From Paenimyroides viscosum (GTDB taxonomy: Bacteria; Bacteroidota; Bacteroidia; Flavobacteriales; Flavobacteriaceae): a stretch of 34,366 nt of DNA. Location of the stretch: NCBI RefSeq assembly GCF_003858535.1, contig NZ_RQTJ01000006.1:1-34366 (forward strand), read 5' to 3'. Shown here one piece after another: positions 16,753-31,416 of the stretch. The translations under genes and the position numbers were made by a program. A model generated the notes under the pieces. That model was not told the origin of the DNA, searched no databases, and saw nothing but the letters and a program-made list of their open reading frames with translations. Numbering within the stretch: the stretch's first letter is position 1; the number at the start of each line of letters is the position of its first letter.

Positions 16753-16783
16753 ATTTTTAGTTTAAGATAGTAAAATTTTAGAA

Positions 16784-16807
16784 AACAACAACAACAACAA
16801 CAACAAC
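16784..16807. repeat. trinucleotide microsatellite (AAC)8
   Basis: Eight uninterrupted AAC units, read as GTT repeats on the coding strand of the peptidase gene, 31 bp before its ATG. Unit-number changes would alter promoter or leader spacing. Confidence 0.95.
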
Positions 16808-16809
16808 AG

Positions 16810-17082
16810 GAAAACCCTAACATTGCGTTGAAATTAAACGATACTTATCCATAGCGCATTATCTGTGTATATGTAACAAACTAAAAACCAATGTAGTTGT
16901 TTTTTTTTACCACAAAGGTTCTGTATTTACTGTTGAACAAATTTTAGGTTACATAGTTTTTTTATCTTGAAAAATAAATAGAGCTTGACTATGTGTTTTA
17001 TCAATGATAAAAACTACTATACCTATTGTTGCTTATATCTTGCCAATAAATAGTTAAACAACTATGTTTTTTATTGTGTTTT
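16810..17082. other. AT-rich non-coding spacer with short repeats
   Basis: No credible gene. It holds several variants of CTATGT (near 16949, 16989, 17062), a perfect TTTTATC / GATAAAA hairpin at 16996-17012, and a 20-mer (16843-16862) matching 17 of 20 bases with 34301-34320. Similar CTATGTG words occur at 19512-19652 on the other side of the sigma/Cas12f-like pair. Confidence 0.6.
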
Positions 17083-17216
17083 AAAAACATATAAGTGTGT
17101 GTATCTGTGGCTATTTAATAAAAATGAGCCCACGCGTTGTATATACAATGTGCATTTAGTGAGTGTTGCTAGCAAACTCACCCTACGGGTGTACAAGCAC
17201 CCTCGTTATTGTATTT
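17083..17216 (-). ncRNA. candidate guide RNA of the dead-Cas12f system
   Basis: Starting right after the stop codon of the Cas12f-like gene, on its strand, four hairpins can be drawn in a row: GGGTG/CACCC (17202-17198 with 17191-17187); GTGAGT/ACTCAC extended by TTG/CAA (17181-17173 with 17168-17159); TTGT/ACAA with outer CAC/GTG (17152-17145 with 17140-17131); and GGCT/AGCC extended by ATTT/AAAT (17130-17122 with 17116-17109). About 21 nt (17108-17088) then precede TTTTT (17087-17083). Position and structure are what one expects for an omega-RNA or fused Cas12f guide RNA. The guide boundary cannot be fixed by eye, and the same features could be only a 3' UTR. Confidence 0.5.
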
Positions 17217-18320
17217 TTAAGCTGTAATAAGTTCTATTCCCGCCTTATCTGCCTTGTATTTTATTTTTGTCATGAGGTTATGATAACTCCAATTCCTTAA
17301 CACAAATTCTTCTGTTTTAGCCACCTCTATTTTCTCCTGCATATCCAGCAAGATCAAAGTACCTGCCCGATGCTGTACACAGAAATCTATCAGTCTTTTA
17401 CTGTAAAGGTGTAAACGGTTGTTTACATAGTTGTCTTCTGCTTTTCTTAATTTCTCTGTAGCCTTTAATTTTCTTTTGATTCCTTTGTCCGAGCGGCAGT
17501 AATTAACACCTATACACACACGTTCCATTGATTTCTGGATAGCCAGCCTTCTGTAAAGAAACTCTTCCTGGGTACCAATGGTTAAACGGGCTTTTCCAAT
17601 TTTTACAACCAACGGATATTCCAACGAAAGCGACGCTTCTGCAACAACTTCTATGTTCAGATTATTATCTTCCTTCTGTATTTCAAATACCGGCAGCCAG
17701 AAGATTTTACCGTCCTGTAACTTGATATGTGAGGTACAAAGTTTCACTTCGCCAGCAACCACCTGTTCCAACAACTTTCGTTTGTCTGTAAAATCTTTTC
17801 CCAAATACGTATAGAACGGAATGGAAAACAACCGGAAACAAAAGGCCCTTTTATCTGCATTGTACGAAAACCCGCCAATACCTTCCAGTCCAAAAGGGAA
17901 TGCCATATTCCTCTTAAAACTCTTAACAGAAGATTCTCCTCTCCTATATCCTTCAATATCTTTTTTAAAGGAAGAAAGCAATGCGTTGTTCAAACAAGAC
18001 AGTATGTTTGTGGGAATTTCACCTTTAAAACGATCGGATACCACACGATAAGTAGTGTTTATACGCGAACGCTGCAACATACCCGTTGCATCCTTTTTTT
18101 CATCGGCGAGTTTGTACTTGATTCCGTCAGACAGATAAAAGAACTCGCGTATCATTTCCTGTACATACAAATGCGACACAATAAGGTTGGCTGCCCTGTA
18201 GCACCTGTTCTGCCATCTGTACAAGGTATCCAGCGCTTCCTTGCGTTCTGCCTGTGTAGGGAGATCGACTACAATCTGTATTTTTCGGGTCAATTTCATG
18301 GTTGATGTTGCCATAATCAT
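17217..18320 (-). CDS. nuclease-dead Cas12f/TnpB-like RNA-guided protein
   Basis: 367 residues. The N-terminus (MKLTRKIQIVVDLPTQAERK) and the helical part look like the wedge and recognition regions of Cas12f/TnpB. The C-terminal part follows the Cas12f RuvC layout: EASLSLEYPLVV (228-239) aligns with the first motif xVDLGIxYP, with Ser230 in place of the catalytic Asp. AGTLILLDMQ (319-328) aligns with AGTIxxEDL, with Leu325 in place of the catalytic Glu. LRNWSYHNLMTKIKYKADKA (341-360) is the conserved helix before the zinc finger. The protein stops at GIELITA, lacking the CxxC zinc finger and third catalytic Asp. It starts 4 nt after the sigma gene, so both are co-expressed. I infer RNA-guided DNA binding without cleavage. 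Confidence 0.85.
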   Translation of the reverse strand: MIMATSTMKLTRKIQIVVDLPTQAERKEALDTLYRWQNRCYRAANLIVSHLYVQEMIREFFYLSDGIKYKLADEKKDATGMLQRSRINTTYRVVSDRFKGEIPTNILSCLNNALLSSFKKDIEGYRRGESSVKSFKRNMAFPFGLEGIGGFSYNADKRAFCFRLFSIPFYTYLGKDFTDKRKLLEQVVAGEVKLCTSHIKLQDGKIFWLPVFEIQKEDNNLNIEVVAEASLSLEYPLVVKIGKARLTIGTQEEFLYRRLAIQKSMERVCIGVNYCRSDKGIKRKLKATEKLRKAEDNYVNNRLHLYSKRLIDFCVQHRAGTLILLDMQEKIEVAKTEEFVLRNWSYHNLMTKIKYKADKAGIELITA

Positions 18321-18324
18321 ACTG

Positions 18325-19101
18325 TTATAATGCTTTCTGCTGATACTGCATCAATTTATATCCCGCCATAAATTCATCGTGTACTTCTTTTTGGGAAATA
18401 TTAAGCTCGCTGGCGATGGCTGCAAAGGAAAACTTCTTTTCGAACCGGAGGTTTAACACTGCAGACTGCCTTTCGTTGATGCTTTTTTGTTCTTCTGGCT
18501 TTGTAGCCCCTATTTGTTTTTTTTCAAGGACATTGTACTTATCAACAATATTTTTAAGGTCTTCGATGGCCCGCTTTACCTGGTTCGATGTTTCCTTGAT
18601 GCCTTTACCAGTTACCTGCGCAATTGCCTTGTACCTGAAACCGTATTTTAAGCAAAGCTGTATCAGGTGTCTTCTTTCTGAGCTTATCAAAGGCAGTGCC
18701 TTGTTTACCAGATCAAATAAACGCTGCTGCTCTTCTTGATCTTTTAAATTTTCAATAACATCTGCCGGATCGTAACCTGCCAGATAGTTTCCATAATTTT
18801 CGTAGCTCTCGAACGATCGTACGGTTGTTTTAAAAAATTTGTTGTGCGGTTTGGAATAGTGCGAATAACAGCTATATTTCATTACATATCGCAGAAAAAA
18901 AAAGATATGCATGGGATCTTCTACCTTTTCGCGGTATTCCCATAATTTTAAAAAAGCATCCTGTACCAGATTTTCTACAACAAAATCATCATCGAGTATC
19001 TGTCTGCCCAACCAAAAGATCCTTCTGCTGTATTGGGCATGAATGTTTTCTAAAGCAGCGGGATCACTGTTTTTTAATAATTCAAAATTCTTTTCAAGCA
19101 T
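18325..19101 (-). CDS. ECF-type RNA polymerase sigma factor with extra C-terminal helix-turn-helix
   Basis: 258 residues, longer than usual ECF factors (about 170-200). Region 2 spans about 10-80 (NLVQDAFLKLWEYREK is the core-binding and -10 region). A long linker (about 85-130) follows, then region 4 (about 135-185, LKYGFRYKAIAQVTGKGIKE). A further 60 residues contain a second region-4-like unit (QSAVLNLRFEKKFSFAAIAS to about 250). No anti-sigma gene and no susCD-type genes are adjacent. It is the first gene of a two-gene operon with the dead Cas12f-like gene, so I infer that the RNA-guided protein positions this sigma factor. A -7 box lies at 19160-19167. Confidence 0.88.
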   Translation of the reverse strand: MLEKNFELLKNSDPAALENIHAQYSRRIFWLGRQILDDDFVVENLVQDAFLKLWEYREKVEDPMHIFFFLRYVMKYSCYSHYSKPHNKFFKTTVRSFESYENYGNYLAGYDPADVIENLKDQEEQQRLFDLVNKALPLISSERRHLIQLCLKYGFRYKAIAQVTGKGIKETSNQVKRAIEDLKNIVDKYNVLEKKQIGATKPEEQKSINERQSAVLNLRFEKKFSFAAIASELNISQKEVHDEFMAGYKLMQYQQKAL

Positions 19102-19141
19102 AATAGGGGTGGTTTTAATTATCCTTTTCTCTGATGGTATA

Positions 19142-19214
19142 CTTTCTTCATTTGTAGCGCAAAAGTAAAAAGACAGCTGAATCTGGTTCTAATAAATTTA
19201 ATCTTCAATCAAAA
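19142..19214. repeat. 73-bp direct repeat, copy 1 (sigma operon promoter region)
   Basis: Matches 20221-20292 in the same orientation at roughly 80% by eye; the longest shared runs are GCTGAATCTGGTT and TAATAAATTTAATCTTCA. This copy contains the -7 box of the sigma gene. Confidence 0.8.
19160..19167 (-). promoter_or_regulatory. -7 promoter element of the sigma/dead-Cas12f operon
   Basis: TACTTTTG on the minus strand fits TAnnTTTG and lies 58 nt before the sigma start codon. No convincing -33 TTG is seen at the usual distance. The element is inside a 73-bp repeat copied at 20221-20292, where the TA is lost. Confidence 0.5.
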
Positions 19215-20220
19215 TCTAATAGAAATATTTCGAATTTCATTCTCCATAATTCGTGATTGATACATTTCGGTTTCTCTGTACTTTACGTCCAGCCTTTATT
19301 TTATAGCTTGGAAGCCGTGAATCTTCGATTTGTGATCAAAAGAAGCAAAAATCTTTTTTCTTTATATGATTAATAATCTATTTTACTTTTTGAAATCATG
19401 AATCTTCGATTTCTTACCTCACTTCAAAACGGTTAAACTCTTCCTCGTTCACTAGCTGATCAAATTTATTCATTCTCTTATATTTAATCCGTTTGATGTA
19501 ATTATTTCCATCACATAGAAACATAGATTTTTTGTTATGTTTTTAAAAGATTATGATAGACGTTTTACTTTTCGCATAGCAAACTATGTGAAGAATAGTA
19601 TTATTTTCTATCACATCTTTACCAATTAGTGATAATTCTATGCGTCTATGTAGTTAATTTTATTTATTTTGAATTACACCCAACGGCTTTATATTTAATA
19701 ATAATGTATTCATGAATCTTTGATTTCGCTACGCTCAAACAGACATTTTGTTCTTAACGTGTAAAAACATTCATAGCTTCACGGCTTTTTTATAATGTCG
19801 GTTTTTAGACCCCCCTAATTAGTCTATTCCCTTTTCAATCAAAATGCCAATGTTGAACAAATCCAGAATTAAAAGCATTTTTATAAATGGTTTTTTGTTT
19901 TATGTTTTTTATTTGTTATCTTTAGCTGTTTTTACTTCCTAAAACACCCATTTTTACTTTTTTGAATTTTTCGTTTTTTTCTGACTAAATTGAAATATTT
20001 AGAATAATTTTCTGTTTTTGTGTAAAATTTCAGAAAATGTGTTTCATGCACTATCTATGCCTTTACTATGCTTTATCTACTTAGTATCCTCCTACCTGCG
20101 TATTTAGAAAATCTTTCGGTGACCCGTTTCATCAAAATGCTTGATAATTGATCTCTTCTTATCTTCTATTTTTACTCAAAAATCCAGATGTTGAATTGTT
20201 TTGGATTTAAGAGCGAAATT
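19215..20220. other. about 1 kb non-coding, AT-rich stretch between the two repeat copies
   Basis: No gene that I can support on either strand. It holds three copies of TGAATCTTCGATTT or a one-base variant (19319-19332, 19399-19412, 19713-19726), CTATGTG/CACATAG words at 19512-19518, 19584-19590 and 19646-19652, and a TAGAC/GTCTA inverted repeat near 19806-19826. It looks like decayed DNA or a region of regulatory or guide-type repeats rather than coding sequence. Confidence 0.6.
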
Positions 20221-20292
20221 ATTTTTTCAATTTGCGACCAAAAGAAAAAAGATTGCTGAATCTGGTTTTAATAAATTTAATCTTCATCAAAA
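20221..20292. repeat. 73-bp direct repeat, copy 2
   Basis: Second copy of the element at 19142-19214. The promoter-like part reads TTTCTTTTG here, so it lacks the TA of a -7 box. It is not followed by a gene on the minus strand. Confidence 0.8.
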
Positions 20293-20378
20293 ACCCCACT
20301 TCCTCTACTCTGTTCCCTTTCAAAAAAACAAACCCTTTTTGAAGTCCCAGCACCCGCATTAGTCCTTTAACATTTAAT

Positions 20379-20624
20379 TTGGAAAATATAAATAAAGGCG
20401 TTACTTTTAGAGTGCGAGTAAAAAAGTTAAAAAGCCCCATTTGTATGGTACCAAAGCAAGATTTTGCGGTGCTGCGACAATGGCTTTTGTGTACAAAATA
20501 CGGTGAGGTACTACCATACGGTAAGCCTATTGCTGTATATAAGGTGCCAGTGCAACAAAAAGGTTTGCTGTACCTAGTTAAGGCGGATGGGTTATGGCGG
20601 TATGTACAAATTTCGTTCTCATAG
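20379..20624 (+). CDS. small hypothetical protein, uncertain start
   Basis: 81 codons from a TTG at 20379; the first ATG in frame is at 20445. The reading frame is open upstream only to a stop at 20340. The composition (KKLKSPICMVPKQDF; YGKPIAVYKVPVQQKGLLYL; GLWRYVQISF) looks like a real globular, beta-rich protein rather than random AT-rich translation, and the local GC is higher than in the flanking spacer. A 42-codon ORF follows after 10 nt on the same strand. I do not recognise the family. It may be a decayed remnant. Confidence 0.4.
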   Translation: MENINKGVTFRVRVKKLKSPICMVPKQDFAVLRQWLLCTKYGEVLPYGKPIAVYKVPVQQKGLLYLVKADGLWRYVQISFS

Positions 20625-20634
20625 ATAAGATTTT

Positions 20635-20763
20635 ATGTGGTTATGGAACGATGTTTTTCTGGAGTATGAAGATTTCTTGCAGAAAAAGGCAAGGCGGTTT
20701 CACACTTTAGTATCGAGGGCGACCAAACCCACTTTTAAACAAAAAGTTAAAAGCTACCACTAA
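20635..20763 (+). CDS. very small hypothetical protein (42 aa)
   Basis: ATG at 20635, stop at 20761-20763, 10 nt after the preceding small ORF. The product begins MWLWNDVFLEYEDFLQKKAR and is basic at its C-terminus. Its last third overlaps an imperfect palindrome (20693-20782). Same strand and tight spacing suggest a two-gene unit with 20379-20624, but there is no recognisable domain. Confidence 0.35.
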   Translation: MWLWNDVFLEYEDFLQKKARRFHTLVSRATKPTFKQKVKSYH

Positions 20764-20782
20764 AGCATATGTGAAAACCGCC
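20693..20782. repeat. imperfect long inverted repeat, possible structured element
   Basis: Outer arms GGCGGTTT-CAC (20693-20703) and GTGAAAACCGCC (20771-20782), then CTTTAGT (20705-20711) with ACTAAAG (20759-20765), then CTTTTAA (20732-20738) with TTAAAAG (20747-20753). The nesting gives one extended stem-loop of about 90 nt. Confidence 0.6.
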
Positions 20783-20993
20783 CATGCCGTATGCGAAAGT
20801 ACAAAACTTTTTTAGACATGAAGCGATTTCACGATACTCTCGAGGTAAAATTGGTCGTTTCGATTCGAGATTACATCGTTATAATTTGTCTTAAACAGAC
20901 TTATTATCAATTCGCTAAAACAAATATAAGCTTTATTTATTTATATGCAAAAAATATTTTAATTAAAAACCAAAAAACATTATAAAAAACATA

Positions 20994-21488
20994 ATGAACG
21001 ATAGAAATACCAAATTTAGAGAAAGTATAGGTCATAAATTAAAAGAATATCGTCTCAAGAATTTCTTATCAATTGATGATATTGTTTATATGTCCGAAAT
21101 CTCTAAAAGTTCAGTTCTAAAAGCTGAAAAAGGGACTGCTAAAGACATAGATTTATACGTAGAATATGCAAAAGCAGTACAATATCCTTTAGCCACTTTG
21201 ACAGATTTCAATATTCCGCTTATACCTATCAATACCCTACCTAAAGAAAGATTAGAAGCTGTTAATCTAACTGCTAAAATCAGAGAGCATATCGTAAACA
21301 GTAGATTTTTAAAAGCGGGTAAAGTTGTAGCAGAAATTAAAGAAGAACTACTAAGATTAAAGCTTATTCCAAAAGAAACTACTTCGCAAGCAGTTGCTGG
21401 TGTTATGCGTAATCTTAAAGAAGATGGTTTGGTAGCAACTGCTGATAAAAAAGGAAGGAAAGAGGTTTATTTAAAGTACAATGAATAA
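20994..21488 (+). CDS. Xre-type helix-turn-helix regulator with C-terminal winged-helix-like part
   Basis: 164 residues. An N-terminal Xre HTH (about 8-65: IGHKLKEYRLKNFLSIDDIV, then SKSSVLKAEKG) is followed by a C-terminal region (about 90-160) with alternating helices and a basic strand KKGRKEVYLKY that resembles a winged helix. It lies convergent to hsdR, 143 bp away, at the left edge of the restriction operon, and may control it, but nothing in the sequence proves this. The upstream region is very AT-rich with the repeated-structure element at 20693-20782 about 200 bp away. Confidence 0.8.
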   Translation: MNDRNTKFRESIGHKLKEYRLKNFLSIDDIVYMSEISKSSVLKAEKGTAKDIDLYVEYAKAVQYPLATLTDFNIPLIPINTLPKERLEAVNLTAKIREHIVNSRFLKAGKVVAEIKEELLRLKLIPKETTSQAVAGVMRNLKEDGLVATADKKGRKEVYLKYNE

Positions 21489-21631: not shown

Positions 21632-24600
21632 TTACCGATTCTTTTTGAAATTTTCCGCTTGTTCCAACACGTTTTTGTACACATCTTCCTGTGTTATGGG
21701 CGGATACCCAAATTCATGAAGTTTCACGATAATATCCATTTTTAATTGTGCTTTGATATCATCACGGTCGTTCCAGTCAGGATATTTAGCGGTATTGTCA
21801 ACAATCTTTTTTATTTCACGTGCCAATTCCAACATCTTATCGTTATCGAATTCAAAACCGTATTGCTTACAAATCATATCCAAAATATCGTAAAAAGCTT
21901 TTTCTTCGTAATCAATACCCAAATCCTGAAAAGAATCCATTTCGGCACGAAGCTTAATGATCAACTCGATCATTTGCTCTGCTGTATCAAACTGAATGCC
22001 TTCATAATCTAAAATATCACCCTCACTACGTTCGTTGTAACGGTTGATGATGGATTGTAAACGCTCTGAAAAATCTTGTCCTTTTACTTTATTTACCTTT
22101 TTAAAATCGTTGATGGTTTGCTTTAACAAACGTTCTAAAATCTTAATCTTGGTATTAGGCAACTCCAAATTGGAGATTTTCTCTATAAACTTATCATTGA
22201 ATAAATCAATCGTATTCGCTTTATTATCATCGAGTTTAAAGATTTCTTCCACACCTTCTGATATGATGGCTTCTTCGACCAATTTAGCGACTTTGGCATT
22301 CATTTGAGCCGTATCTGGTGCTTCACCTTTGGTCAACTTCACAACAATTGATTTCACGGCAAAATAGAAATGAATTTCATCTACTTCTCTCGAACTAAAC
22401 AATTCTGAACCGCTGACTAGATTGTATGAAGATTTTAGCTTCTTCGTTACATTCACAAAAAACTTCTCAGATTCTTGTGTTAGTAATACCAATTCAGAAG
22501 CTCTGTTTAAACAGTTTAAACGCTGAACAGGTACTCCTTCAAAATAATCTTTTGAATCAAAGCGATGAAAAAATTGGCGTAATAAATCTAACTGATCTCT
22601 CACAATAATTTCTGCTTGTGCAATATCTTCAAAATCATCGTCTGCAGTTTGATTGTTAAACATCCCCAGTGCATGATTCAGATTCTTTTTGAGGCCGATA
22701 TAATCAACCACCAAACCTCTGTCTTTTCCTTCGTATTTTCGATTGACACGAGAAATGGTCTGTATCAAATTATGTGTTTGCAATGGTTTGTCAATGTAAA
22801 TGGTATCCAAGAAAGGAACATCAAAACCGGTTAACCACATATCAACTACAATTGCAATTTTAAAATTGGAATTGATTTGTTTAAACTGACGGTCTAGCTC
22901 TTTTCGTTCGTCTTTATTACCCAATAAATCCCACAACTCCTTTTCATCATCTTTATTGCGAGTCATAATCATTTTGACACGCTCAATCGGCTTGATTTCT
23001 TTTTGTTCTTTATCGGTTAAGCCTTCAGCTAATTTTATATCGCCCCATTCTGGTCGTAATGCTAAAAGTTCTTTATATAATTTATAGGCAATGCCACGAG
23101 AGGCACACACAAACATCACTTTACCTGCAACAGTTGCGTTTTCTTCTAATCTGCTTTCATAATGCTCAACAAAATCTTTGGCAATGGCTTTAATGCGGTC
23201 TGAATCACCTAAAACCACTTCCATTTTAGCAATCGCTTTTTGGCTGGCTTCTACATGATATTCAGACGCGCCTTCGGCAACTGCATTTTCATAATAGTTC
23301 TCAATTTCCTGAACCTTGTTATAATCCAAATTCACTTTTGCAGCCCTACCTTCATAGACCAATCGAACGGTAATCTCATCATTAACTGATTCAAACATGG
23401 TGTATTGATCCACCACATCACCAAATACTTCTAACGTTTTATCAATTGGTGTTCCAGTAAACCCTACATAAGTTGCATTTGGTAATGAATCGTGTAAATA
23501 TTTAGCAAAACCATACGATTTGGTAACTCCTTTTTCATCGTCAATTTTTACTTTTAAATCTAAATTGACTTGTGAACGGTGGGCTTCATCTGAAATACAA
23601 ATAATATTGGTTCTGTCGGATAAAATTTCTGAATCTTCGGCAAATTTCTGAACGGTTGTTAAAAATACACCTCCGCTTTCTCTACCTCTTAATCGACTTC
23701 TTAAATCGGCTCGTGATTCAATATTGATAATGTTTTCATCACCAATAAAATCTTTTGCATTGGTAAAGTCTTTCGACAATTGATCGTCCAAATCGGTTCT
23801 ATCAGAAATGATAATAATGGTTGGACTTGCGAAATCGGTAGAACGCATTAATAACCTAGAAAGATATAACATGGTATAACTTTTTCCACAGCCTGTTGCT
23901 CCAAAATAAGTTCCTCCCTTACCATCACCTTCGGGTTTGCGATGCGCTTTTATGTTTTGATACAACTTTTTAGATGCGTAATACTGCGGATAACGTGTGA
24001 GTATTTTTAGTTCGTTTTTTGAATTATCCGGAAACAGCACAAAGTGATGAATAATATCAACTAAACGGTTTTGGTTCAGCATTCCATGAACAATAGAAGT
24101 TGTAGTATCAATACCTGTTAAGGCTTTCTTTTCGTCACCTGTAATTTTGTTCCAACCATAATAAAATTCGTAAGACGAAAATACCGTTCCTGCTTTATTG
24201 TTCACTCCATCACTAATTACACAAAAGACATTGTATTTCATCAGTTCCGGAATAGCTCTACGGTAACGAATCGTTAATTGTTTAAACGCATCGTGAATGG
24301 TAATTTCTTCTTCAATAGCTGTTTTAAATTCAAAAACTACTACCGGAATGCCATTGATGTACAAAATCAAATCAGGAATACGTAATTCCGTTCCTTGAAT
24401 TTCTAATTGATTGACAATTTTAAAACTATTCTTGCTTATATCTTTTATATCGATAAATCGAATATGTAAGTCTTTCTTTGCCGGATTATTGCGTTTGAAA
24501 ATAAACCCATCCGCCAACAGCTTACAGATGTATTTATTGGATTCATACAAATTAGAAGCGGATTGAAACGCTAATTCATTGACCAAGCTTTCCAGTTCAA

Positions 24601-24769
24601 TTTCTTCCAAATCGGGATAACGCTTCAACAAAAAAGTACGTAAATCCTCTCTCAATAATACGTCTTGATTAGAAGAACGATCGAGTTCTTTTCCGTTAAT
24701 GTATCGATAACCTTCTGTTTCCAAAAGGCTGATAAATGCTTGTTCTAATTGTGATTCAGTGTATTTCAT
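21632..24769 (-). CDS. hsdR: type I restriction endonuclease, R (motor/nuclease) subunit
   Basis: 1045 residues from the ATG at 24769; a TTG two codons further upstream also keeps the frame open, but ATG is more likely. The N-terminal nuclease domain shows Asp133 (PDLILY) and Glu147-x-Lys149 (VVFEFKT), a PD-(D/E)XK site. The translocase has Walker A GATGCGKS (about 290-297), DEAH (394-397) and later helicase motifs including VDMWLTGFDVP and QTISRVNRKYEGK. It completes the HsdMS enzyme encoded at 31417-34192 but is separated from it by six accessory genes. A 21-codon copy of its 5' end remains at 27464-27529, pointing to an insertion or duplication event. Confidence 0.97.
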   Translation of the reverse strand: MKYTESQLEQAFISLLETEGYRYINGKELDRSSNQDVLLREDLRTFLLKRYPDLEEIELESLVNELAFQSASNLYESNKYICKLLADGFIFKRNNPAKKDLHIRFIDIKDISKNSFKIVNQLEIQGTELRIPDLILYINGIPVVVFEFKTAIEEEITIHDAFKQLTIRYRRAIPELMKYNVFCVISDGVNNKAGTVFSSYEFYYGWNKITGDEKKALTGIDTTTSIVHGMLNQNRLVDIIHHFVLFPDNSKNELKILTRYPQYYASKKLYQNIKAHRKPEGDGKGGTYFGATGCGKSYTMLYLSRLLMRSTDFASPTIIIISDRTDLDDQLSKDFTNAKDFIGDENIINIESRADLRSRLRGRESGGVFLTTVQKFAEDSEILSDRTNIICISDEAHRSQVNLDLKVKIDDEKGVTKSYGFAKYLHDSLPNATYVGFTGTPIDKTLEVFGDVVDQYTMFESVNDEITVRLVYEGRAAKVNLDYNKVQEIENYYENAVAEGASEYHVEASQKAIAKMEVVLGDSDRIKAIAKDFVEHYESRLEENATVAGKVMFVCASRGIAYKLYKELLALRPEWGDIKLAEGLTDKEQKEIKPIERVKMIMTRNKDDEKELWDLLGNKDERKELDRQFKQINSNFKIAIVVDMWLTGFDVPFLDTIYIDKPLQTHNLIQTISRVNRKYEGKDRGLVVDYIGLKKNLNHALGMFNNQTADDDFEDIAQAEIIVRDQLDLLRQFFHRFDSKDYFEGVPVQRLNCLNRASELVLLTQESEKFFVNVTKKLKSSYNLVSGSELFSSREVDEIHFYFAVKSIVVKLTKGEAPDTAQMNAKVAKLVEEAIISEGVEEIFKLDDNKANTIDLFNDKFIEKISNLELPNTKIKILERLLKQTINDFKKVNKVKGQDFSERLQSIINRYNERSEGDILDYEGIQFDTAEQMIELIIKLRAEMDSFQDLGIDYEEKAFYDILDMICKQYGFEFDNDKMLELAREIKKIVDNTAKYPDWNDRDDIKAQLKMDIIVKLHEFGYPPITQEDVYKNVLEQAENFKKNR

Positions 24770-24783
24770 AATCAATAATTGCT

Positions 24784-25818
24784 TTACTCCTCGTCTTTTT
24801 CAGGTGGAGTTAATTTAACGATTCGATCAAAATCGCTTTCAAACAATTGGTCTTGTATAATTCTGTATTTTTCAAATTCCGTTTCTGCATGAGCTTTGGC
24901 AATTTCGGCAGTTACTTTGCCTGCATTTTGCAACACTTCTCGGTCTGTAGCTTCTATAAATCGGTTCAAACGGCTTTCCCAGTCTTCCATCGTCATCGGA
25001 ATTTGTCTGATCGCCATATCCTCGGCAATATCTAAATAAGCTGAAACCAACCGTTGTAATTGTTGCATTTCGCTTTCGGACAAATAATTTTTAGCTACAC
25101 TGACATCAAATTTTTGAATTTTACCATCTGGAGCATCTTTCCAAGTGGTTAATCCCATATTTCCCTTTTGATGATCGGCTCTATTTACAATAACTTCTGC
25201 GGCTGTTTGACCGTGTATTGCCCAATGTAATTTGTTTTGAACCGTAGCAAAAAAGCGTTTCGTAACCTGAGCTGTTACATCATAATCAATAGCGGTTGAA
25301 TAAAGGTCTGTTATTTTTTGATAGAATTTGCGTTCACTCAATCTGATTTCCCGTATGCGCTGAAGCTGTTCTTCAAAGTATTTTTTTCCGAGAATCGTTC
25401 CATCGTTTTTAAGACGCTCATCGTCCATTGCAAAACCTTTGATGGTAAACTCTTGTACAATTTGAGTAGCCCATTTACGAAATTGCGCCGCACGTTCGGA
25501 ATTTACCTTGTAACCAACCGCAATAATTGCAGAAAGATTGTAGTGTTGTGTATTGTAGTTTTTGCCATCTTGGGCAGTTATTCGAAAATTTCGAATAACT
25601 GAATTTTCATCTAACTCATTATCATTAAAAACTTTCTTTAGATGGTAATTGATGGTATGCGTTTCTACATTGTATAGCGCACCCATCATTTTTTGCGACA
25701 ACCAAATATTTTCATCTGCATAAATAGCATCAACACCACCTTCGCCCGAAGCTGCAATAAAAGTTAAGTATTCTGCCGATGAAGAGCGTACTAAAGATTT
25801 TTTATTGTTTTCTTTCAT
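24784..25818 (-). CDS. RhuM-family protein
   Basis: 344 residues with the RhuM signature wording: IWLSQKMMGALYNVETHTIN, NYNTQHYNLSAIIAVGYKVN, and RAAQFRKWATQIVQEFTIKG. The central part (LSERKFYQKITDLYSTAIDY) and TAAEVIVNRADHQKGNMGLT also match the family. RhuM proteins were named in a Salmonella pathogenicity island; they are often carried in type I restriction loci, where their function is unsettled. It is 14 nt before hsdR and follows hipA by 45 nt, so it is part of the same minus-strand run. Confidence 0.9.
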   Translation of the reverse strand: MKENNKKSLVRSSSAEYLTFIAASGEGGVDAIYADENIWLSQKMMGALYNVETHTINYHLKKVFNDNELDENSVIRNFRITAQDGKNYNTQHYNLSAIIAVGYKVNSERAAQFRKWATQIVQEFTIKGFAMDDERLKNDGTILGKKYFEEQLQRIREIRLSERKFYQKITDLYSTAIDYDVTAQVTKRFFATVQNKLHWAIHGQTAAEVIVNRADHQKGNMGLTTWKDAPDGKIQKFDVSVAKNYLSESEMQQLQRLVSAYLDIAEDMAIRQIPMTMEDWESRLNRFIEATDREVLQNAGKVTAEIAKAHAETEFEKYRIIQDQLFESDFDRIVKLTPPEKDEE

Positions 25819-25863
25819 TGTGTTGACTGTTTATCGTAGAGTTGTGTTTTATAAATATAAGAA

Positions 25864-27114
25864 TTAGGATTTAAAAGCATTTGCCATTAATTCTTGTTCA
25901 GCTCGTGAAATTCCAATTTGTTTGGCAACCACTTGCCAATTTTTAACTACAGCAGTTACTTCATCGATGATCTGATCCATTTCTTTAGCCGCTAATCGGA
26001 AATATTCACCAACACTTTTGGCGAGTTCGAAATCCAAATCGTTCGTATCCATATCGATATTCAAAGCTAAACCATCTTTATCTATGGATGGATTCAAATC
26101 ATAAGCAGGAGATAAAATCCAACCGTCATTCGTTAAAATAAATCCGTGATTTCGTAAATGGTCATCTGTATTTGAAATGGCAATATTAAAGATAATTCTA
26201 CGCCACAATTGTGCTAAATTCTCATTGATATTACATCCATTGGTCTGAATAAACTCCACTAAATCTAAATAACTGGCAGGCTGACTTTTTATAGTCTCTT
26301 CATTATTCGCAGTCATGGTCATCGCAGAAGCAAAATGAATTCGATCTGTTCTTTCACGATCAAAACGTTTGGTGAAAAAAGTATGATACGGTCCATTAAT
26401 TTTCTCGATTTTACATTCAGCCATTGTTATGCCTGCTTTTAAAGCGAGTTGATATGCTAAATATTCCCAAGCTGCTTTATCTATCGTATCATTTTTAGAT
26501 GGAAATTTAGCAATCCATGGATGTTTGTTATCATCCAAAATATTGGCTTTCGGACGTGCTCCCCCCAAAGAAGAACCAGGTGCTATCAACAATTGTAACC
26601 ATCTGGCCATGGCTTCGTTGTCGGTATCATTTTCGTAATGAACCACCGCTTGCTGTAATTCTCGCACGGTAGACCAAGGTGGTGTCGATTTTTCTGTATC
26701 GTTATCTAAAAAATCACCTTTCGGATCTAGTTTAAAACGTAAAGCACCCATACGCGTTTCGTCATAAACCCCTAATAGGAAATCGATATCATATAATGTT
26801 TTCGCTTTTTCACCTTTTAATTTGGCGAGTTGTGCCTCACGTCTTTTCAGTAAGGTACGTCCCCAAGTATCGGGCATACTGTCTAAAAAAAGACCAAAGT
26901 TTTCTTTTTCGTTGGCAAATTGTGGACCTGCAAATAAATGTAAATCGGGATCTAACTGATATTGATGTCCAGATTGTAGCCATAGTTTATCATACGAAAA
27001 GCTGAAAGCCTTACGCCCTTTAGCTTGATGAGCAGATAAAACGCCCATTAACAATGGAGCTTCTAAGCCTTGCCAATCTGCATAAACATATATATCGGTT
27101 TTTTGTACTGCCAT
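25864..27114 (-). CDS. hipA: HipA-family serine/threonine kinase toxin
   Basis: 416 residues. The HipA kinase features are present: GGARPKANILDD (184-195), Lys203 in WIAKFPSK, catalytic loop NTDDHLRNHGF (315-325) with Asp318, and metal-binding Asp339 in PAYDLNPS. HipA kinases inactivate translation factors (glutamyl-tRNA synthetase in E. coli) and cause growth arrest. It follows hipB by 1 nt, so the pair forms a toxin-antitoxin unit with its own operator upstream. It lies inside the restriction operon, between the OLD-family gene and rhuM. Confidence 0.94.
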   Translation of the reverse strand: MAVQKTDIYVYADWQGLEAPLLMGVLSAHQAKGRKAFSFSYDKLWLQSGHQYQLDPDLHLFAGPQFANEKENFGLFLDSMPDTWGRTLLKRREAQLAKLKGEKAKTLYDIDFLLGVYDETRMGALRFKLDPKGDFLDNDTEKSTPPWSTVRELQQAVVHYENDTDNEAMARWLQLLIAPGSSLGGARPKANILDDNKHPWIAKFPSKNDTIDKAAWEYLAYQLALKAGITMAECKIEKINGPYHTFFTKRFDRERTDRIHFASAMTMTANNEETIKSQPASYLDLVEFIQTNGCNINENLAQLWRRIIFNIAISNTDDHLRNHGFILTNDGWILSPAYDLNPSIDKDGLALNIDMDTNDLDFELAKSVGEYFRLAAKEMDQIIDEVTAVVKNWQVVAKQIGISRAEQELMANAFKS

Positions 27115-27115
27115 C

Positions 27116-27397
27116 TTATAACAAATCTAAATCTTGTAATTTTCGTCCGAACGTGTCGTCTGCTGCTAACTTTAAAAAATCATCTTGTAAGCCTAATACA
27201 CGAAGTACATTAAAATAGGCACCCATCGCTACACTTGGATCTCCTTTCTCGATTAAACTTAAAGTAGAGCGGGCAATATCTGCTCTTTCAGCAACTTGAA
27301 CAGCCGTTAATTTTCGACGTTTACGAGCGAGTTTAATTTGCTCACCCATTTGTGCCAAAGTATCTTTATATCGAGGTAAAACAATTTGCTTTTTCAT
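27116..27397 (-). CDS. hipB: HipB-family Xre antitoxin
   Basis: 93 residues. The HTH spans about 14-72 (QIKLARKRRKLTAVQVAERA, then ARSTLSLIEKG). The product should bind HipA and repress the pair through the inverted repeat just upstream (27398-27452). The start codon lies about 20 nt after a TATATTTG -7 box located between the operator arms. Confidence 0.92.
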   Translation of the reverse strand: MKKQIVLPRYKDTLAQMGEQIKLARKRRKLTAVQVAERADIARSTLSLIEKGDPSVAMGAYFNVLRVLGLQDDFLKLAADDTFGRKLQDLDLL

Positions 27398-27452
27398 AAA
27401 CGTCCGTTATTTCATACAAATATAAACAAAATGACTGAAATAACAGACGTTT
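27398..27452 (-). promoter_or_regulatory. hipBA promoter and operator
   Basis: Two 17-bp arms (27398-27414, AAACGTCCGTTATTTCA; 27436-27452) are inverted copies with one mismatch, 21 bp apart. The -7 element TATATTTG (27424-27417, minus strand) sits between them. This is a typical layout for a repressor dimer pair blocking the promoter, so autoregulation by HipB is likely. Confidence 0.8.
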
Positions 27453-27463
27453 TAATTTATATC

Positions 27464-27529
27464 TTATTTATTTTCTGTTTTTAAAAGGCTTATATATGCT
27501 TGTTCTAATTGAGGTTTGGTGTGTTTCAT
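27464..27529 (-). pseudogene. 21-codon remnant of the hsdR 5' end
   Basis: ATG at 27529 encodes MKHTKPQLEQAYISLLKTEN and one more residue before a stop; the intact hsdR starts MKYTESQLEQAFISLLETEG. DNA of 27483-27529 matches 24723-24769 at about 80% by eye. It starts 4 nt after the OLD-family stop codon, so it marks where hsdR once followed that gene directly. Confidence 0.85.
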
Positions 27530-27532
27530 GTT

Positions 27533-29332
27533 TTAAAAAGGCAAGTCATCATTTAATTCAACTTGTATGTTTTGTAATGGATTAACATGTGTTAAATTAT
27601 TTATCCCTACAAACAGAGCCAAATTTTCAGGAAACAAATCATCCGTAATTATAAAACCTGGATTATTAATATGATTCCATATTTTCAAAGAACTCTTATC
27701 GTCGCTTGTATACCCTATTACTTCTTCTAATTTTTTAACATTGAAGTGAATTCTATCAATTATTGTACTTTCAATTAAATTTCTATTGGTTGTTAACATC
27801 CCTTTTTTAGTTCTATCACCACCTGTATAAATAGGATCGGCTTGCAATGCGTTTAAATCTGCAAACCCTCTAATTTGGGCGATAGAAATATCTGCTAAAT
27901 CAAAATCCCAATCATTAACTAAAAAATAATCAATCTGAAAATGTTTACACAATTCAACAATGTATAAGGCTGTTGCCTTTCCATGATGACAAACAAATGA
28001 TATATTTTCAAAATTTAAATAAGTATCCGCAAATTTAGATTTATCAATTATATCATCTCTTGTAGCAATAGCTTCTAGTACTTTTCTCCTTATTACTTCC
28101 TTATACACTAAAACATCATTAGGCCCTTCTACAAGAATTACTTTTTTACTGAAAAGCATTCTATTAAGATTAGGTTCAACGGTTTTGATATATTCATTAA
28201 ATCGTGCTACATTAATTGGTTCATCAAAATCAGCAGGGTTTAATCCTAAAAATGGATTAACAAAATATCCTACATTATTATAAGCATTTATTGTTTGATT
28301 ATTCTCATCTGTATCTAGACGAATAATTCCTTTAGTATCAAAAGCATCAATCATTCTGTCTGAGTGAGTAGTATATATTACTTGATGGCCTTTTTCAGCA
28401 AGGGTACATAAAACCATCTTATAAAAATACTCTTGATGATTTTCGTGTAAGAAACTCTCAGGCTCTTCAAATAAAAACAAACATCTATCATCGATATTAG
28501 TTTCTGCAATTGCTTGTATAACTGCCATAACAAACATAGAAATAAAGCCATCTCCAAAATGATCAATAGGAATTAGATTCTCAGAATTACCATTTAAACC
28601 AACCTTAAACATCATTTTTAAAAATATATCCTCATAATTAGGTAAACCAAAATCAACAAAACAACTATTGTTTCGTAGGTTTTGGTGATAATTTCTTTGT
28701 ATAGTTTCTATAAATTGTTTTAATTGAGAATTATCTAAAACTTTATCAGTTGCATCCTTAACTTCAGTTTCAAAATCATCTTTTTTAGCTTTCATAGTAT
28801 TGTCGGCATCTACTAACTTTTGTATATGCTTAGCTAAAAAAGATTTTAGATTTCCCCAACTTGTTTTTTGAGTAGAAATCTCTTCTTTTATATTATGAAA
28901 ATTGATATAGTAAATAGGGGCCTTTTGTTTAATTACCCATTTCTTACTATATTGATTTGATCCAGGATAACAATTACATACATCTTCAACTGATGTAATT
29001 GTGTTATTTGAAACATTTATTATTGTATCATTTTCATAACTATTTCCTAGGCGTAAATGACTATCTGAAATATCTATAGAAAATCTCAATTTAAATCTTG
29101 GAGCATTAGCCCAATTTAAATTATGAAAATCATTTATTGTAAAAGTCTCTTCTCTTACTGACTCATAAAGTCCATATTTTAAAGCATTCAATAAATTACT
29201 TTTCCCTGAATTATTATATCCGATTATTGCAATTGGTTTAAGATAATCATCATTTGGAAAAAGAAAGGTTTGAGCTACACCAAATGATCTATAATTCTTA
29301 AGTTTTATTTCATGGATTCTTATTGATGACAT
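27533..29332 (-). CDS. OLD-family ATP-dependent nuclease (ATPase plus TOPRIM)
   Basis: 599 residues. The ATPase half has Walker A GYNNSGKS (38-45), a signature-like GDGFISM (260-266) and Walker B LFLFEEPESF (285-294), with an H-loop His323 in TTHSDR. The C-terminal TOPRIM domain has EGPND (402-406) and the acidic DWDFD (474-478). Class 1 OLD nucleases (which include GajA of Gabija) have this arrangement. No GajB-like helicase is next to it; instead its neighbour is a TIR-domain protein. Its leader duplicates that of the PD-(D/E)XK gene at 30214-31377. I infer an anti-phage role from family and location. Confidence 0.9.
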   Translation of the reverse strand: MSSIRIHEIKLKNYRSFGVAQTFLFPNDDYLKPIAIIGYNNSGKSNLLNALKYGLYESVREETFTINDFHNLNWANAPRFKLRFSIDISDSHLRLGNSYENDTIINVSNNTITSVEDVCNCYPGSNQYSKKWVIKQKAPIYYINFHNIKEEISTQKTSWGNLKSFLAKHIQKLVDADNTMKAKKDDFETEVKDATDKVLDNSQLKQFIETIQRNYHQNLRNNSCFVDFGLPNYEDIFLKMMFKVGLNGNSENLIPIDHFGDGFISMFVMAVIQAIAETNIDDRCLFLFEEPESFLHENHQEYFYKMVLCTLAEKGHQVIYTTHSDRMIDAFDTKGIIRLDTDENNQTINAYNNVGYFVNPFLGLNPADFDEPINVARFNEYIKTVEPNLNRMLFSKKVILVEGPNDVLVYKEVIRRKVLEAIATRDDIIDKSKFADTYLNFENISFVCHHGKATALYIVELCKHFQIDYFLVNDWDFDLADISIAQIRGFADLNALQADPIYTGGDRTKKGMLTTNRNLIESTIIDRIHFNVKKLEEVIGYTSDDKSSLKIWNHINNPGFIITDDLFPENLALFVGINNLTHVNPLQNIQVELNDDLPF

Positions 29333-29367
29333 AATTCACAGTGTTTCCTTGGTTATTAGTGTTTATA
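29333..29367. repeat. leader repeat, copy 2 (before the OLD-family gene)
   Basis: 35 bp immediately before the OLD-family ATG, 32 of 36 aligned positions identical to 31378-31413 before the PD-(D/E)XK gene. Beyond it, 29372-29385 still resembles the hsdS 3' end (11 of 14 positions). Confidence 0.85.
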
Positions 29368-29428
29368 GTTATTACCCCATCAACATTTTCAAATATTATA
29401 TCAACGTTTGAGGTTTAAATAATTTTGT

Positions 29429-30112
29429 CTAATCTTCTACTTTAACTAATTCTGCTAGTTTGGAAGCGATAGAATCCATCGTATCCTCTTTAGTACTAAG
29501 GCCACTTCTTGATCCCAATAATGGACTTACTTCTCGTAAATCATCATATGTTGTATTGTGAACAATTGGAACTAACAAATCGCGAGCTAACAATACAGAA
29601 AGTTCCTTATCAGCAATTCCTTCACCTTTTATTCTTTTAAGAAAATTTGGAGTTACTAGAACAATTCCAACTCTTGATTTGATTAAACCTTTATCAATTT
29701 CTCGTAGTAATGAAGAACCTAACAATACATCTTTTTCACTAAACCAGACTGTAACTCCTTTTGACTCTAATAAATCATGCATTTCTTGGGCAGCTTCTTT
29801 CCTATCATCCCATGCATGGCAAAGAAAAACATCTCTTAAATCAGGAAGGTCTGCTCGTTTCTCTATATTTTCTCGAACTGGGGTAAGAGTTCTAATTTCT
29901 GCAGGTGTATATAAGATTGTCGAACCTCCAGCAGACCAACGTGCTCTGGATTTACCACTACTTACACTTGCTGCTCTACTTGCAGAAGAACTATAAGGAG
30001 ATGAGTACGATGAATAAGAATTATAACTTCTATAACTACCCCCACATGCAGGGCAGTTTGCTCTTGCACTTGCTGAACGATGACCATTTACTGGTGCTGT
30101 ACATCTTGCCAT
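29429..30112 (-). CDS. TIR-domain protein with N-terminal zinc-ribbon-like region
   Basis: 227 residues. The N-terminus has C4, H11, C20 and C23 (CPAC) that could bind zinc, followed by a Ser/Tyr-rich low-complexity linker (25-65). The TIR domain covers about 93-225: DVFLCHAWDDR (94-104), GVTVWFSEKDVLLGSSLLRE (119-138), and IADKELSVLL with Glu170 at the position of the NAD-hydrolysing catalytic Glu. Bacterial TIR proteins make signalling nucleotides or deplete NAD during phage defence. It sits between the PD-(D/E)XK and OLD-family genes; the pairing does not match Thoeris, which needs a ThsA-type partner. About 60 bp before the next gene is free of ORFs. Confidence 0.9.
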   Translation of the reverse strand: MARCTAPVNGHRSASARANCPACGGSYRSYNSYSSYSSPYSSSASRAASVSSGKSRARWSAGGSTILYTPAEIRTLTPVRENIEKRADLPDLRDVFLCHAWDDRKEAAQEMHDLLESKGVTVWFSEKDVLLGSSLLREIDKGLIKSRVGIVLVTPNFLKRIKGEGIADKELSVLLARDLLVPIVHNTTYDDLREVSPLLGSRSGLSTKEDTMDSIASKLAELVKVED

Positions 30113-30152
30113 ATTTGTAATTTTATAATTGGTTAATAGTTTAGTTTTAGTT

Positions 30153-30217
30153 TTACCCCTCCAACGTTGCCAAGCGACTTAACAATAACGATTGAAGCTG
30201 AGTGAGTTTTTGGTTAT
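30153..30217 (-). pseudogene. duplicated 3' end of hsdS
   Basis: The minus strand here reads NQKLTQLQSLLLSRLATLEG then a stop, the exact C-terminus of the HsdS protein encoded at 31417-32643; DNA differs at only a few wobble positions. It begins within the stop codon of the PD-(D/E)XK gene. It is a scar, not a gene. Confidence 0.9.
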
Positions 30218-31377: not shown

Positions 31378-31413
31378 AATTCATAGTGTTTCTTTTGGTT
31401 ATTCGTGTTTATA
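31378..31413. repeat. leader repeat, copy 1 (before the PD-(D/E)XK gene)
   Basis: 36 bp between the hsdS stop and the PD-(D/E)XK start, nearly identical to the leader at 29333-29367. Reading on the minus strand it ends AAACACTATGAATT before the ATG. Confidence 0.85.
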
Positions 31414-31416
31414 TTT

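What the first reader, a model, noticed from the sequence alone, without database searches (positions are those of the whole stretch)
17217..19101. Nuclease-dead Cas12f-like gene co-transcribed with an ECF sigma factor: candidate RNA-guided transcription system
Seen: the sigma and Cas12f-like genes are 4 nt apart on one strand. The RuvC motifs read EASLSLEYP and AGTLILLDMQ, so Ser and Leu replace the catalytic Asp and Glu, and the C-terminal zinc finger and last Asp are absent. Known: dead TnpB proteins act as RNA-guided repressors, and dead Cas12f homologues linked to sigma factors in Bacteroidota have recently been reported to drive RNA-guided transcription. Inference: this locus is a member, perhaps a new branch, that recruits RNA polymerase to guide-matched sites.
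Basis: partly seen in the sequence, partly recalled or inferred. Interest (0 to 1): 0.95.

Follow-up and report, generated by a model that had tools for sequence, protein, structure and literature searches.

The report
RNA-guided activator bypassing an RNA switch
This bacterial gene pair encodes a cutting-dead CRISPR-type protein and an RNA-polymerase sigma factor closely related to a solved RNA-guided complex; its predicted guide RNA likely aims RNA polymerase at an RNA on/off switch that in related bacteria sits in front of nutrient-import genes, where transcription would start past the off signal.

Summary
17217-18320(-) is a full-length nuclease-dead Cas12f. 18325-19101(-), 4 nt upstream, is an ECF sigma factor. 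Both match one solved series: PDB 9n9c dCas12f (E 8.9e-168) and the RpoE chain of 9n9q (E 1.6e-84). It is a member of the known dCas12f-sigmaE kind, not a new branch. New here: a predicted guide RNA lies directly downstream (scaffold 17202-17136, guide from 17135), its scaffold conserved in 25 distinct copies; 13 of 22 loci share the guide start GCGTGGGCTC. In relatives the closest matches of that guide lie on the switching strand of a roughly 130-nt leader with a promoter box, strong covariation, two mutually exclusive folds (hairpin or terminator) and no Rfam match. It precedes SusC/SusD operons and, at several loci, the sigma-dCas12f operon itself. 9 of 9 dCas12f genomes in the family sample carry it, against 29 of 190 others. 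RNA-guided initiation there would start beyond the terminator's 5' arm and bypass the switch (inferred). In this genome the best match is a leader on another contig (10 of 12 seed bases); the window's own leader is diverged and matches weakly. RNA binding and transcription are untested, and the original paper could not be read.

The parts
17217..18320 (-). nuclease-dead Cas12f (dCas12f), 367 aa
18325..19101 (-). partner ECF sigma factor (sigmaE), 258 aa
17136..17202 (-). predicted guide-RNA scaffold, starting 14 nt after the dCas12f stop; three stems
17118..17135 (-). predicted guide GCGTGGGCTCATTTTTAT; its 3' end is not known
20683..20866 (-). diverged leader switch (closing helices, central strand, terminator with T-run), starting about 1.8 kb and ending about 1.6 kb upstream of sigma; 91% identical copy at G000:C62:2571-2785
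20770..20788 (-). weak candidate target: G (20788) followed by GCATGGGCGGTTTTCACA, on the 5' arm of that terminator; 8 of 12 seed bases, not significant alone
20921..20928 (-). TATATTTG, Bacteroidota-type -7 box (consensus recalled) of the leader
20994..21488 (+). divergent gene, 164 aa, HTH/XRE-like by 24% identity to an HTH_3 protein beside another leader; Pfam finds no family in it

Best explanation
The locus encodes a nuclease-dead Cas12f, its partner sigma factor and, predicted from conservation, a guide RNA, and it likely works as an RNA-guided transcription activator. Related genomes show where it points: the guide matches, with rare exceptions behind a 5'-G, the switching strand of a structured leader in front of SusC/SusD import operons and, at several loci, in front of the sigma-dCas12f operon itself. 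That leader has its own promoter box and can fold either as a closed hairpin (terminator prevented) or as an intrinsic terminator. The R-loop would open the DNA exactly at the terminator's 5' arm, and the sigma would start RNA polymerase downstream of it, so the new transcript would lack that arm and could not be terminated. The result would be a second, guide-encoded, switch-independent promoter for outer-membrane importers, with positive feedback where the operon targets itself. Shown by calls: homology, scaffold, guide, guide/leader matches, leader covariation, promoter box, gene context. Inferred: RNA binding, R-loop, RNA polymerase recruitment, start-site position, bypass. In this genome the likely target is the leader at G000:C50:2976-3107, on the contig of the second sigma-dCas12f locus; what it drives there is unclear.
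For: dCas12f and sigma match chains of the same PDB series over nearly their full length. Scaffold directly after the dCas12f stop, 25 distinct copies by pattern, three stems; in 19 aligned copies 7 of 18 pairs change on both sides in at least one. With the common guide (18 nt, up to 3 mismatches) in nine dCas12f genomes, 6 of 6 non-guide hits with 1-2 mismatches and 7 of 18 with 3 mismatches lie in leaders; the reversed pattern gives 12 background hits (places read). 14 of 21 leaders in those genomes match a guide of the same genome at 10 or more of 12 seed bases behind G (no shuffled control there); in the ten named genomes 12 of 14 leaders match at 9-12 of 12, 11 of these 12 behind G. Leader in 9 of 9 full-length-dCas12f genomes against 29 of 190 others, p 1.5e-7, and in 9 of 10 named dCas12f genomes. 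Leader folds: 22 of 26 hairpin pairs change on both sides in 44 distinct rows; closing helix, its 5' strand outside the model, 7.3 bp against 3.1 +- 0.2 shuffled, 0 of 500 (42 distinct of 46 rows); terminator 5 of 18 pairs in 14 rows. Promoter box TAnnTTTG on the leader strand in 39 of 46 upstream stretches (45 of R1 leaders, 1 of the window's own leader), 2 of 46 on the other strand, 6.5 +- 2.4 in shuffles. Geometry: G to end of terminator stem 65-70 nt in 14 of 14.
Against: No experiment was possible. The start distance (about 46 bp from the 5'-G) is recalled from the preprint and was not seen. In this genome no leader matches the guide perfectly (10, 9 and 8 of 12), the self-site is weak (8 of 12, p 0.29), and the next sigma gene is 2.9 kb from the C50 leader and 1.7 kb from the window's own site, with no large ORF between. 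In the self-target test of 22 guide/locus rows only 7 rows, 6 distinct loci, scored; three more loci (L009, L019, L070) could not be scored by that script. Flagellimonas-type loci, G063 and Myroides L018 show no such self-site, and L010 and L016 have a leader before sigma that their own guides match poorly or not. G100's guides do not match its R1 leader (6 of 12), the Flagellimonas hadalis leader L143 has T instead of G before the site, and 1 of 10 named genomes has no leader. Single-sequence folding of two full leaders gives the hairpin, not the terminator, as the minimum. All 14 sequences of the model came from guide hits or from loci beside dCas12f, and the genomes are related, so the Fisher p-value overstates independence.
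Confidence: 0.7

Rival explanations
1. Roadblock: the dCas12f R-loop on the leader stops RNA polymerase coming from the leader's own promoter, so the system represses SusC/SusD as TldR proteins repress flagellin, and the sigma serves another role.
For: The guide site lies downstream of a canonical promoter box, where a bound complex could block elongation. TldR proteins repress host flagellin transcription (passages of PMC13418256).
Against: The sigma gene stands directly before dCas12f in the loci whose upstream gene was read, and its PDB relative is a chain of the same structure series. A repressor would not need a dedicated sigma. The two effects could coexist.
Confidence: 0.12
2. Antitermination on RNA: the guide RNA pairs with the 3' arm of the terminator in the nascent leader RNA and frees the downstream gene, without DNA targeting.
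For: The guide resembles the terminator's 5' arm, so it is complementary to much of the 3' arm.
Against: By reading the alignment, the match to the 5' arm is longer and less interrupted than to the complement of the 3' arm, which carries extra or changed bases. A G precedes the site in all 14 aligned leaders. The protein is a relative of a DNA R-loop structure (9n9m).
Confidence: 0.06
3. In this particular genome the system is drifting or decaying: the proteins are intact but the guide no longer has a good functional target.
For: No site within 3 mismatches of the window's 18-nt guide except the guide itself and one poor hit. The Myroides relative L018 also has a deviating guide whose genome's two leaders it does not match. 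Long ORF-poor, repeat-rich DNA upstream of both sigma genes.
Against: Both reading frames are intact, the paralog is 61% identical and also intact, and a leader with 10 of 12 seed bases behind G exists. The window's own leader is 91% identical to a second copy.
Confidence: 0.2

Closest known systems
dCas12f-sigmaE RNA-guided transcription system (PDB 9n9c, 9n9m, 9n9o, 9n9q; Hoffmann et al. 2025 preprint, recalled, not held)
   Same: dCas12f and sigma homology over nearly the full length, lost RuvC residues, missing C-terminal part, adjacent guide RNA candidate, 5'-G beside the matched sites
   Different: The window's genome (Myroides-like by its closest named relative, L018) carries two loci; guide-to-leader-switch targeting and self-targeting are reported here from sequence. 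Whether the original work describes them could not be checked
TldR, nuclease-dead TnpB repressors (Nature 2024, seen only as a citation)
   Same: Dead RuvC, compact, RNA-guided regulator without a CRISPR array (recalled)
   Different: No sigma partner in TldR (recalled); here the closest solved relative is dCas12f and the likely effect is activation
Type V-F CRISPR-Cas12f
   Same: Same fold and sequence family
   Different: Catalytic residues and C-terminal part missing, no repeat array beside the gene
Riboswitch or attenuator leaders (Rfam)
   Same: Alternative hairpin and terminator folds in front of importer genes
   Different: No Rfam family matches the leaders tested; ligand unknown; its switching strand is what the guide matches

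Membership tests
dCas12f-sigmaE RNA-guided transcription | Full-length dCas12f homology | tested here: met
   E 8.9e-168 to 9n9c over residues 3-365; Foldseek top hits 9n9m and 9n9c, although the AF2 model is modest (pLDDT 69.8, pTM 0.55)
dCas12f-sigmaE RNA-guided transcription | Inactive RuvC | tested here: met
   Asp to Ser230 and Glu to Leu325, C-terminal part absent; activity itself not assayed
dCas12f-sigmaE RNA-guided transcription | Adjacent partner ECF sigma | tested here: met
   4 nt apart; E 1.6e-84 to the RpoE chain of 9n9q
dCas12f-sigmaE RNA-guided transcription | Guide RNA encoded beside the gene | tested here: met
   Conserved scaffold plus guide after the stop; expression not tested
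dCas12f-sigmaE RNA-guided transcription | Genomic target with 5'-G motif (motif recalled) | tested here: inconclusive
   Met in many relatives; in this genome only 10 of 12 seed bases at C50:3030
dCas12f-sigmaE RNA-guided transcription | RNA polymerase recruitment and start at fixed distance | not testable with these tools
   Needs ChIP and 5' RACE
TldR repressors | Closest to TnpB and free of a sigma partner (definition recalled) | tested here: not met
   Best solved matches are dCas12f and Cas12f, and a sigma gene is adjacent
Type V-F CRISPR-Cas12f nuclease | Active RuvC and CRISPR array | tested here: not met
   Catalytic residues replaced; no direct repeats in 16753-17216
Known riboswitch or leader class (leader element) | Match to an Rfam model | tested here: not met
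   None at gathering threshold in 12 loci; one leader with E up to 10 gave only five scores far below gathering; none at E 0.05 in three loci

The most novel reading that the evidence does not exclude
Bacteria use a natural RNA-guided RNA polymerase to override an RNA switch: the dCas12f-sigma complex opens the DNA at the switching strand of an unrecorded riboswitch-like leader class and starts transcription past its terminator, so one guide turns on a whole set of outer-membrane importers, and the system itself, whatever the switch senses.
Probability: 0.45. Interest if true: 0.88.

Novelty: new member of a known kind. Interest (0 to 1): 0.68.

Why it matters
RNA-guided transcription is a very new mechanism and its natural purpose is, as far as I know, an open question. 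A shared guide that matches one conserved leader gives a concrete candidate regulon (SusC/SusD importers, other ECF sigma operons, and the system itself) and a testable logic: bypass of an attenuator, plus positive feedback. The leader is a strongly supported structured RNA without an Rfam match, so it is a candidate new switch class whose ligand could now be sought. The fixed geometry between guide site and terminator makes both claims testable with one reporter.

Tried and rejected
Rejected: an exact self-target in the window (no GCGTGGGCTC in the genome besides the guide). Also rejected: an R1-type leader in the window; the default search found none, and with filters off over 19000-21200 the best score was 8.5 bits, E 0.39. 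The diverged leader was found by eye and supported. Also rejected: a repeat array beside dCas12f, known Rfam families, a plasmid home (four weak hits, annotated transposase or TnpB) and tRNA genes in the window. A search with the diverged leader in 199 genomes gave the own genome (two places) plus two short hits in G145 that look like chance: one lies between tRNA genes, one inside a coding region, both read by eye. Guides 3 and 4 of G144, the deviating guide of L016 and both guides of the C50 locus have no convincing target in the stretches scanned. The phage and E. coli collections, viral contigs and metagenomes were not searched.

Literature: searches listed nothing on the natural dCas12f-sigma system by title and abstract start; two lists were capped (20 of 56, 20 of 155). 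The preprint by DOI and PMC11702177 are not held. PMC13418256, PMC11844463 and PMC12803034 were seen as passages only. So I do not claim that leader targeting is unpublished.

Weak points of my own counts: labels of downstream genes rest on a motif rule (17 of 46 SusC/TBDR, 6 sigma-dCas12f, 2 ECF sigma, 4 receiver-like, 17 unlabelled); on reading, three of the unlabelled (L096, L109, L113) look like SusC starts and four (L009, L010, L016, L123, the last two one place) are sigma-dCas12f. The family sample had 11 of 199 genomes with a match; G021 and G143 were counted as without full-length dCas12f (matches of 52 and 53 residues). That searches drew the same 199 genomes is taken from their equal handles. 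In one search the guide of L019 was set to the common guide, which the printed sequence bears out. An earlier count said 11 of 14; the recount gives 12 of 14.

Full report
OBSERVATION. The window holds a sigma gene (18325-19101, minus) followed 4 nt later by a Cas12f-like gene (17217-18320, minus). The Cas12f-like protein matches PDB chain 9n9c_A 'Nuclease-deactivated Cas12f' at E 8.9e-168 from residue 3 to 365, and the Cas12f nuclease 9nzr at E 2.9e-34. In the latter alignment Ser230 and Leu325 stand where the nuclease has Asp and Glu, and the nuclease's C-terminal part is missing. Ser230 is invariant in the 29 sequences picked and aligned, the window's own included. The sigma protein matches chain C of 9n9q, 'RpoE', at E 1.6e-84. 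An AlphaFold2 model of modest quality (pLDDT 69.8, pTM 0.55) still ranks 9n9m, 'dCas12f-gRNA-DNA complex (partial R-Loop)', and 9n9c first among PDB chains (E 1.5e-40 and 2.3e-38, 67% and 62% identity). The locus is thus a member of a known and very recent kind. 784 related proteins were found, and the best 120, the only ones listed, are 66% identical or more, so it is not a new branch.

GUIDE RNA. Directly after the dCas12f stop lies a conserved stretch, GGGTGCTTGTACACCC...GGTGAG...CTCACT...GCATATACAAC, followed by a variable part. 25 distinct scaffold copies were collected by pattern. The RNAalifold consensus of 19 copies has three stems, and 7 of 18 pairs change on both sides in at least one sequence. 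In the window the scaffold is 17202-17136 and the guide starts at 17135: GCGTGGGCTCATTTTTAT. Of 22 distinct loci read, 13 share the guide start GCGTGGGCTC and 12 share GCGTGGGCTCTCTTAT; nine deviate. The paralogous locus in the same genome (C50, 61% identical dCas12f) has two scaffolds in tandem with other guides.

WHAT THE GUIDE MATCHES. The common guide (18 nt) was searched with up to 3 mismatches in the nine genomes with a full-length dCas12f: 30 hits, of which 6 are guides themselves. All 6 further hits with 1-2 mismatches and 7 of the 18 with 3 mismatches lie in one conserved element; 11 do not. The reversed pattern gave 12 background hits. The element was recognised by reading the hit contexts and turned into a covariance model (R1) from 14 sequences (A2).

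THE LEADER ELEMENT. It is about 130 nt long. One fold is a long closed hairpin; the other is an intrinsic terminator (GGCGTGGGCTC...GAGTTCCACGCC plus T-run) that uses the hairpin's inner strand. The RNAalifold consensus is the terminator, while the minimum-energy fold of two single full leaders is the hairpin. On 44 distinct aligned rows 22 of 26 hairpin pairs change on both sides and 98.9% of cells are paired, none of 500 shuffles reaching this; the alignment was fitted to this fold, which favours it. On the 14 rows of A2, not so fitted, the values are 9 of 26 and 94.2%. A closing helix whose 5' strand lies outside the model gives independent support: mean 7.33 bp in 42 distinct sequences (of 46 rows; the rest duplicates or without the motif used) against 3.13 +- 0.20 shuffled, 0 of 500. 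For the terminator fold, 5 of 18 pairs change on both sides on A2. A TAnnTTTG box (the Bacteroidota -7 consensus, recalled) stands on the leader strand in 39 of 46 upstream stretches (45 of R1 leaders and the window's own), clustered near -52 and -71, against 2 on the other strand and 6.5 +- 2.4 in 200 shuffles. It is therefore very likely a transcribed leader with a built-in switch. Rfam has no match in the leaders tested.

GENE CONTEXT. By a motif rule 17 of 46 leaders precede SusC/TonB-dependent receptors, 6 the dCas12f sigma gene, 2 another ECF sigma and 4 a receiver-like gene in what looks like an integrative element; 17 stayed unlabelled, seven of which I read as SusC or dCas12f sigma starts. 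Pfam confirms SusC and SusD for the two operons given to it. A small divergent ORF stands beside 36 of 46; many read as HTH/XRE-type, and Pfam confirms HTH for the one tested (L067). The window fits: a 164-aa gene (20994-21488, plus) lies divergent to the sigma gene and is 24% identical to that L067 protein (E 2e-08), though Pfam finds no family in it.

DISTRIBUTION. R1 finds leaders in 38 of 199 family genomes. All 9 with full-length dCas12f have one, against 29 of 190 others (p 1.5e-7; genomes are related and the model comes partly from them, so significance is overstated). Leaders thus exist without dCas12f, and dCas12f appears to exploit them. Of ten named dCas12f genomes from another search, 9 have a leader, and 12 of their 14 leaders match the guide at 9-12 of 12 seed bases, 11 of them behind a G; the two in the Myroides MAG do not match. 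In the nine family genomes 14 of 21 leaders match a guide of the same genome at 10 or more of 12 behind a G. One deviating guide of G144 finds its best match among 46 leaders in a deviating leader of its own genome, upstream of a SusC (10 of 12, next best 9); with four guides tried this is suggestive only.

SELF-TARGETING. In a test of 22 guide/locus rows, 7 rows (6 distinct loci) carry a site with 10-12 of 12 seed bases behind a G roughly 145-215 nt upstream of their own sigma start (p 0.003 each against 300 shuffled guides, distances corrected for the 40 nt of gene included). Three further loci (L009, L019, L070) were not scored by the script. G100 (L070) shares AAAGCCTTCCC between a guide and a site about 190 nt upstream of its sigma, one base off the expected register. 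Flagellimonas-type loci show none.

THIS GENOME. Three R1 leaders exist: C50:2976-3107, C1:66444-66575 and C68:42148-42280, matching the window's guide at 10, 9 and 8 of 12. The window itself has a diverged leader of the same architecture (20866-20683, minus), strongly conserved in a Myroides MAG (89% mean column identity over the aligned stretch, higher in the core by eye) and 91% identical to a copy on C62, folding 3.3 sd below shuffles, with a -7 box at 20928-20921. The best guide match in the 1.9 kb upstream of sigma falls on the 5' arm of its terminator in the same register as in the other leaders, but at 8 of 12 it is not significant alone (p 0.29). So the target in this organism is likely but not settled.

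MECHANISM. From the 5'-G to the end of the terminator stem is 65-70 nt in 14 of 14 leaders. The predicted outcome is transcription independent of the switch. Roadblock repression and RNA-level antitermination remain as rivals.

VERDICT. Known in kind, since the system is solved. Unusual in what it points at: a strongly supported leader RNA without an Rfam match, in front of importer operons.

Noticed in passing
window 21632-34192: Defence island: HsdR, RhuM-like (PDC-S05), HipA with HTH, OLD/GajA-like, ThsB/TIR-like, PDC-S26, HsdS, HsdM.
   Followed up: partly
G000:C50:6033-7917 (L061): Second intact sigma-dCas12f locus in the same genome, 61% identical dCas12f, with two tandem guide RNAs; no convincing targets in the window or on that contig.
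   Followed up: partly
G000:C62:2139-4265 (L132): Second copy of the window's diverged leader with a divergent HTH-like gene; near the contig end a frame closes with ...MLE, perhaps the edge of a third, missing sigma gene.
   Followed up: no
L086, L087, L121, L115: The leader also precedes a receiver-like orphan gene in what look like integrative elements (ssb- and ThiF-like ORFs by eye in some), with no dCas12f beside it.
   Followed up: no
window 19102-20680: About 1.6 kb of ORF-poor, repeat-rich DNA between leader and sigma gene, partly shared with the C50 locus.
   Followed up: partly
L062, L068: SusC/SusD operons behind the leader continue with a Pfam-detected Met-zincin (DUF4953) in L062 and an M16-like peptidase (read by eye) in L068, hinting at peptide import.
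   Followed up: no
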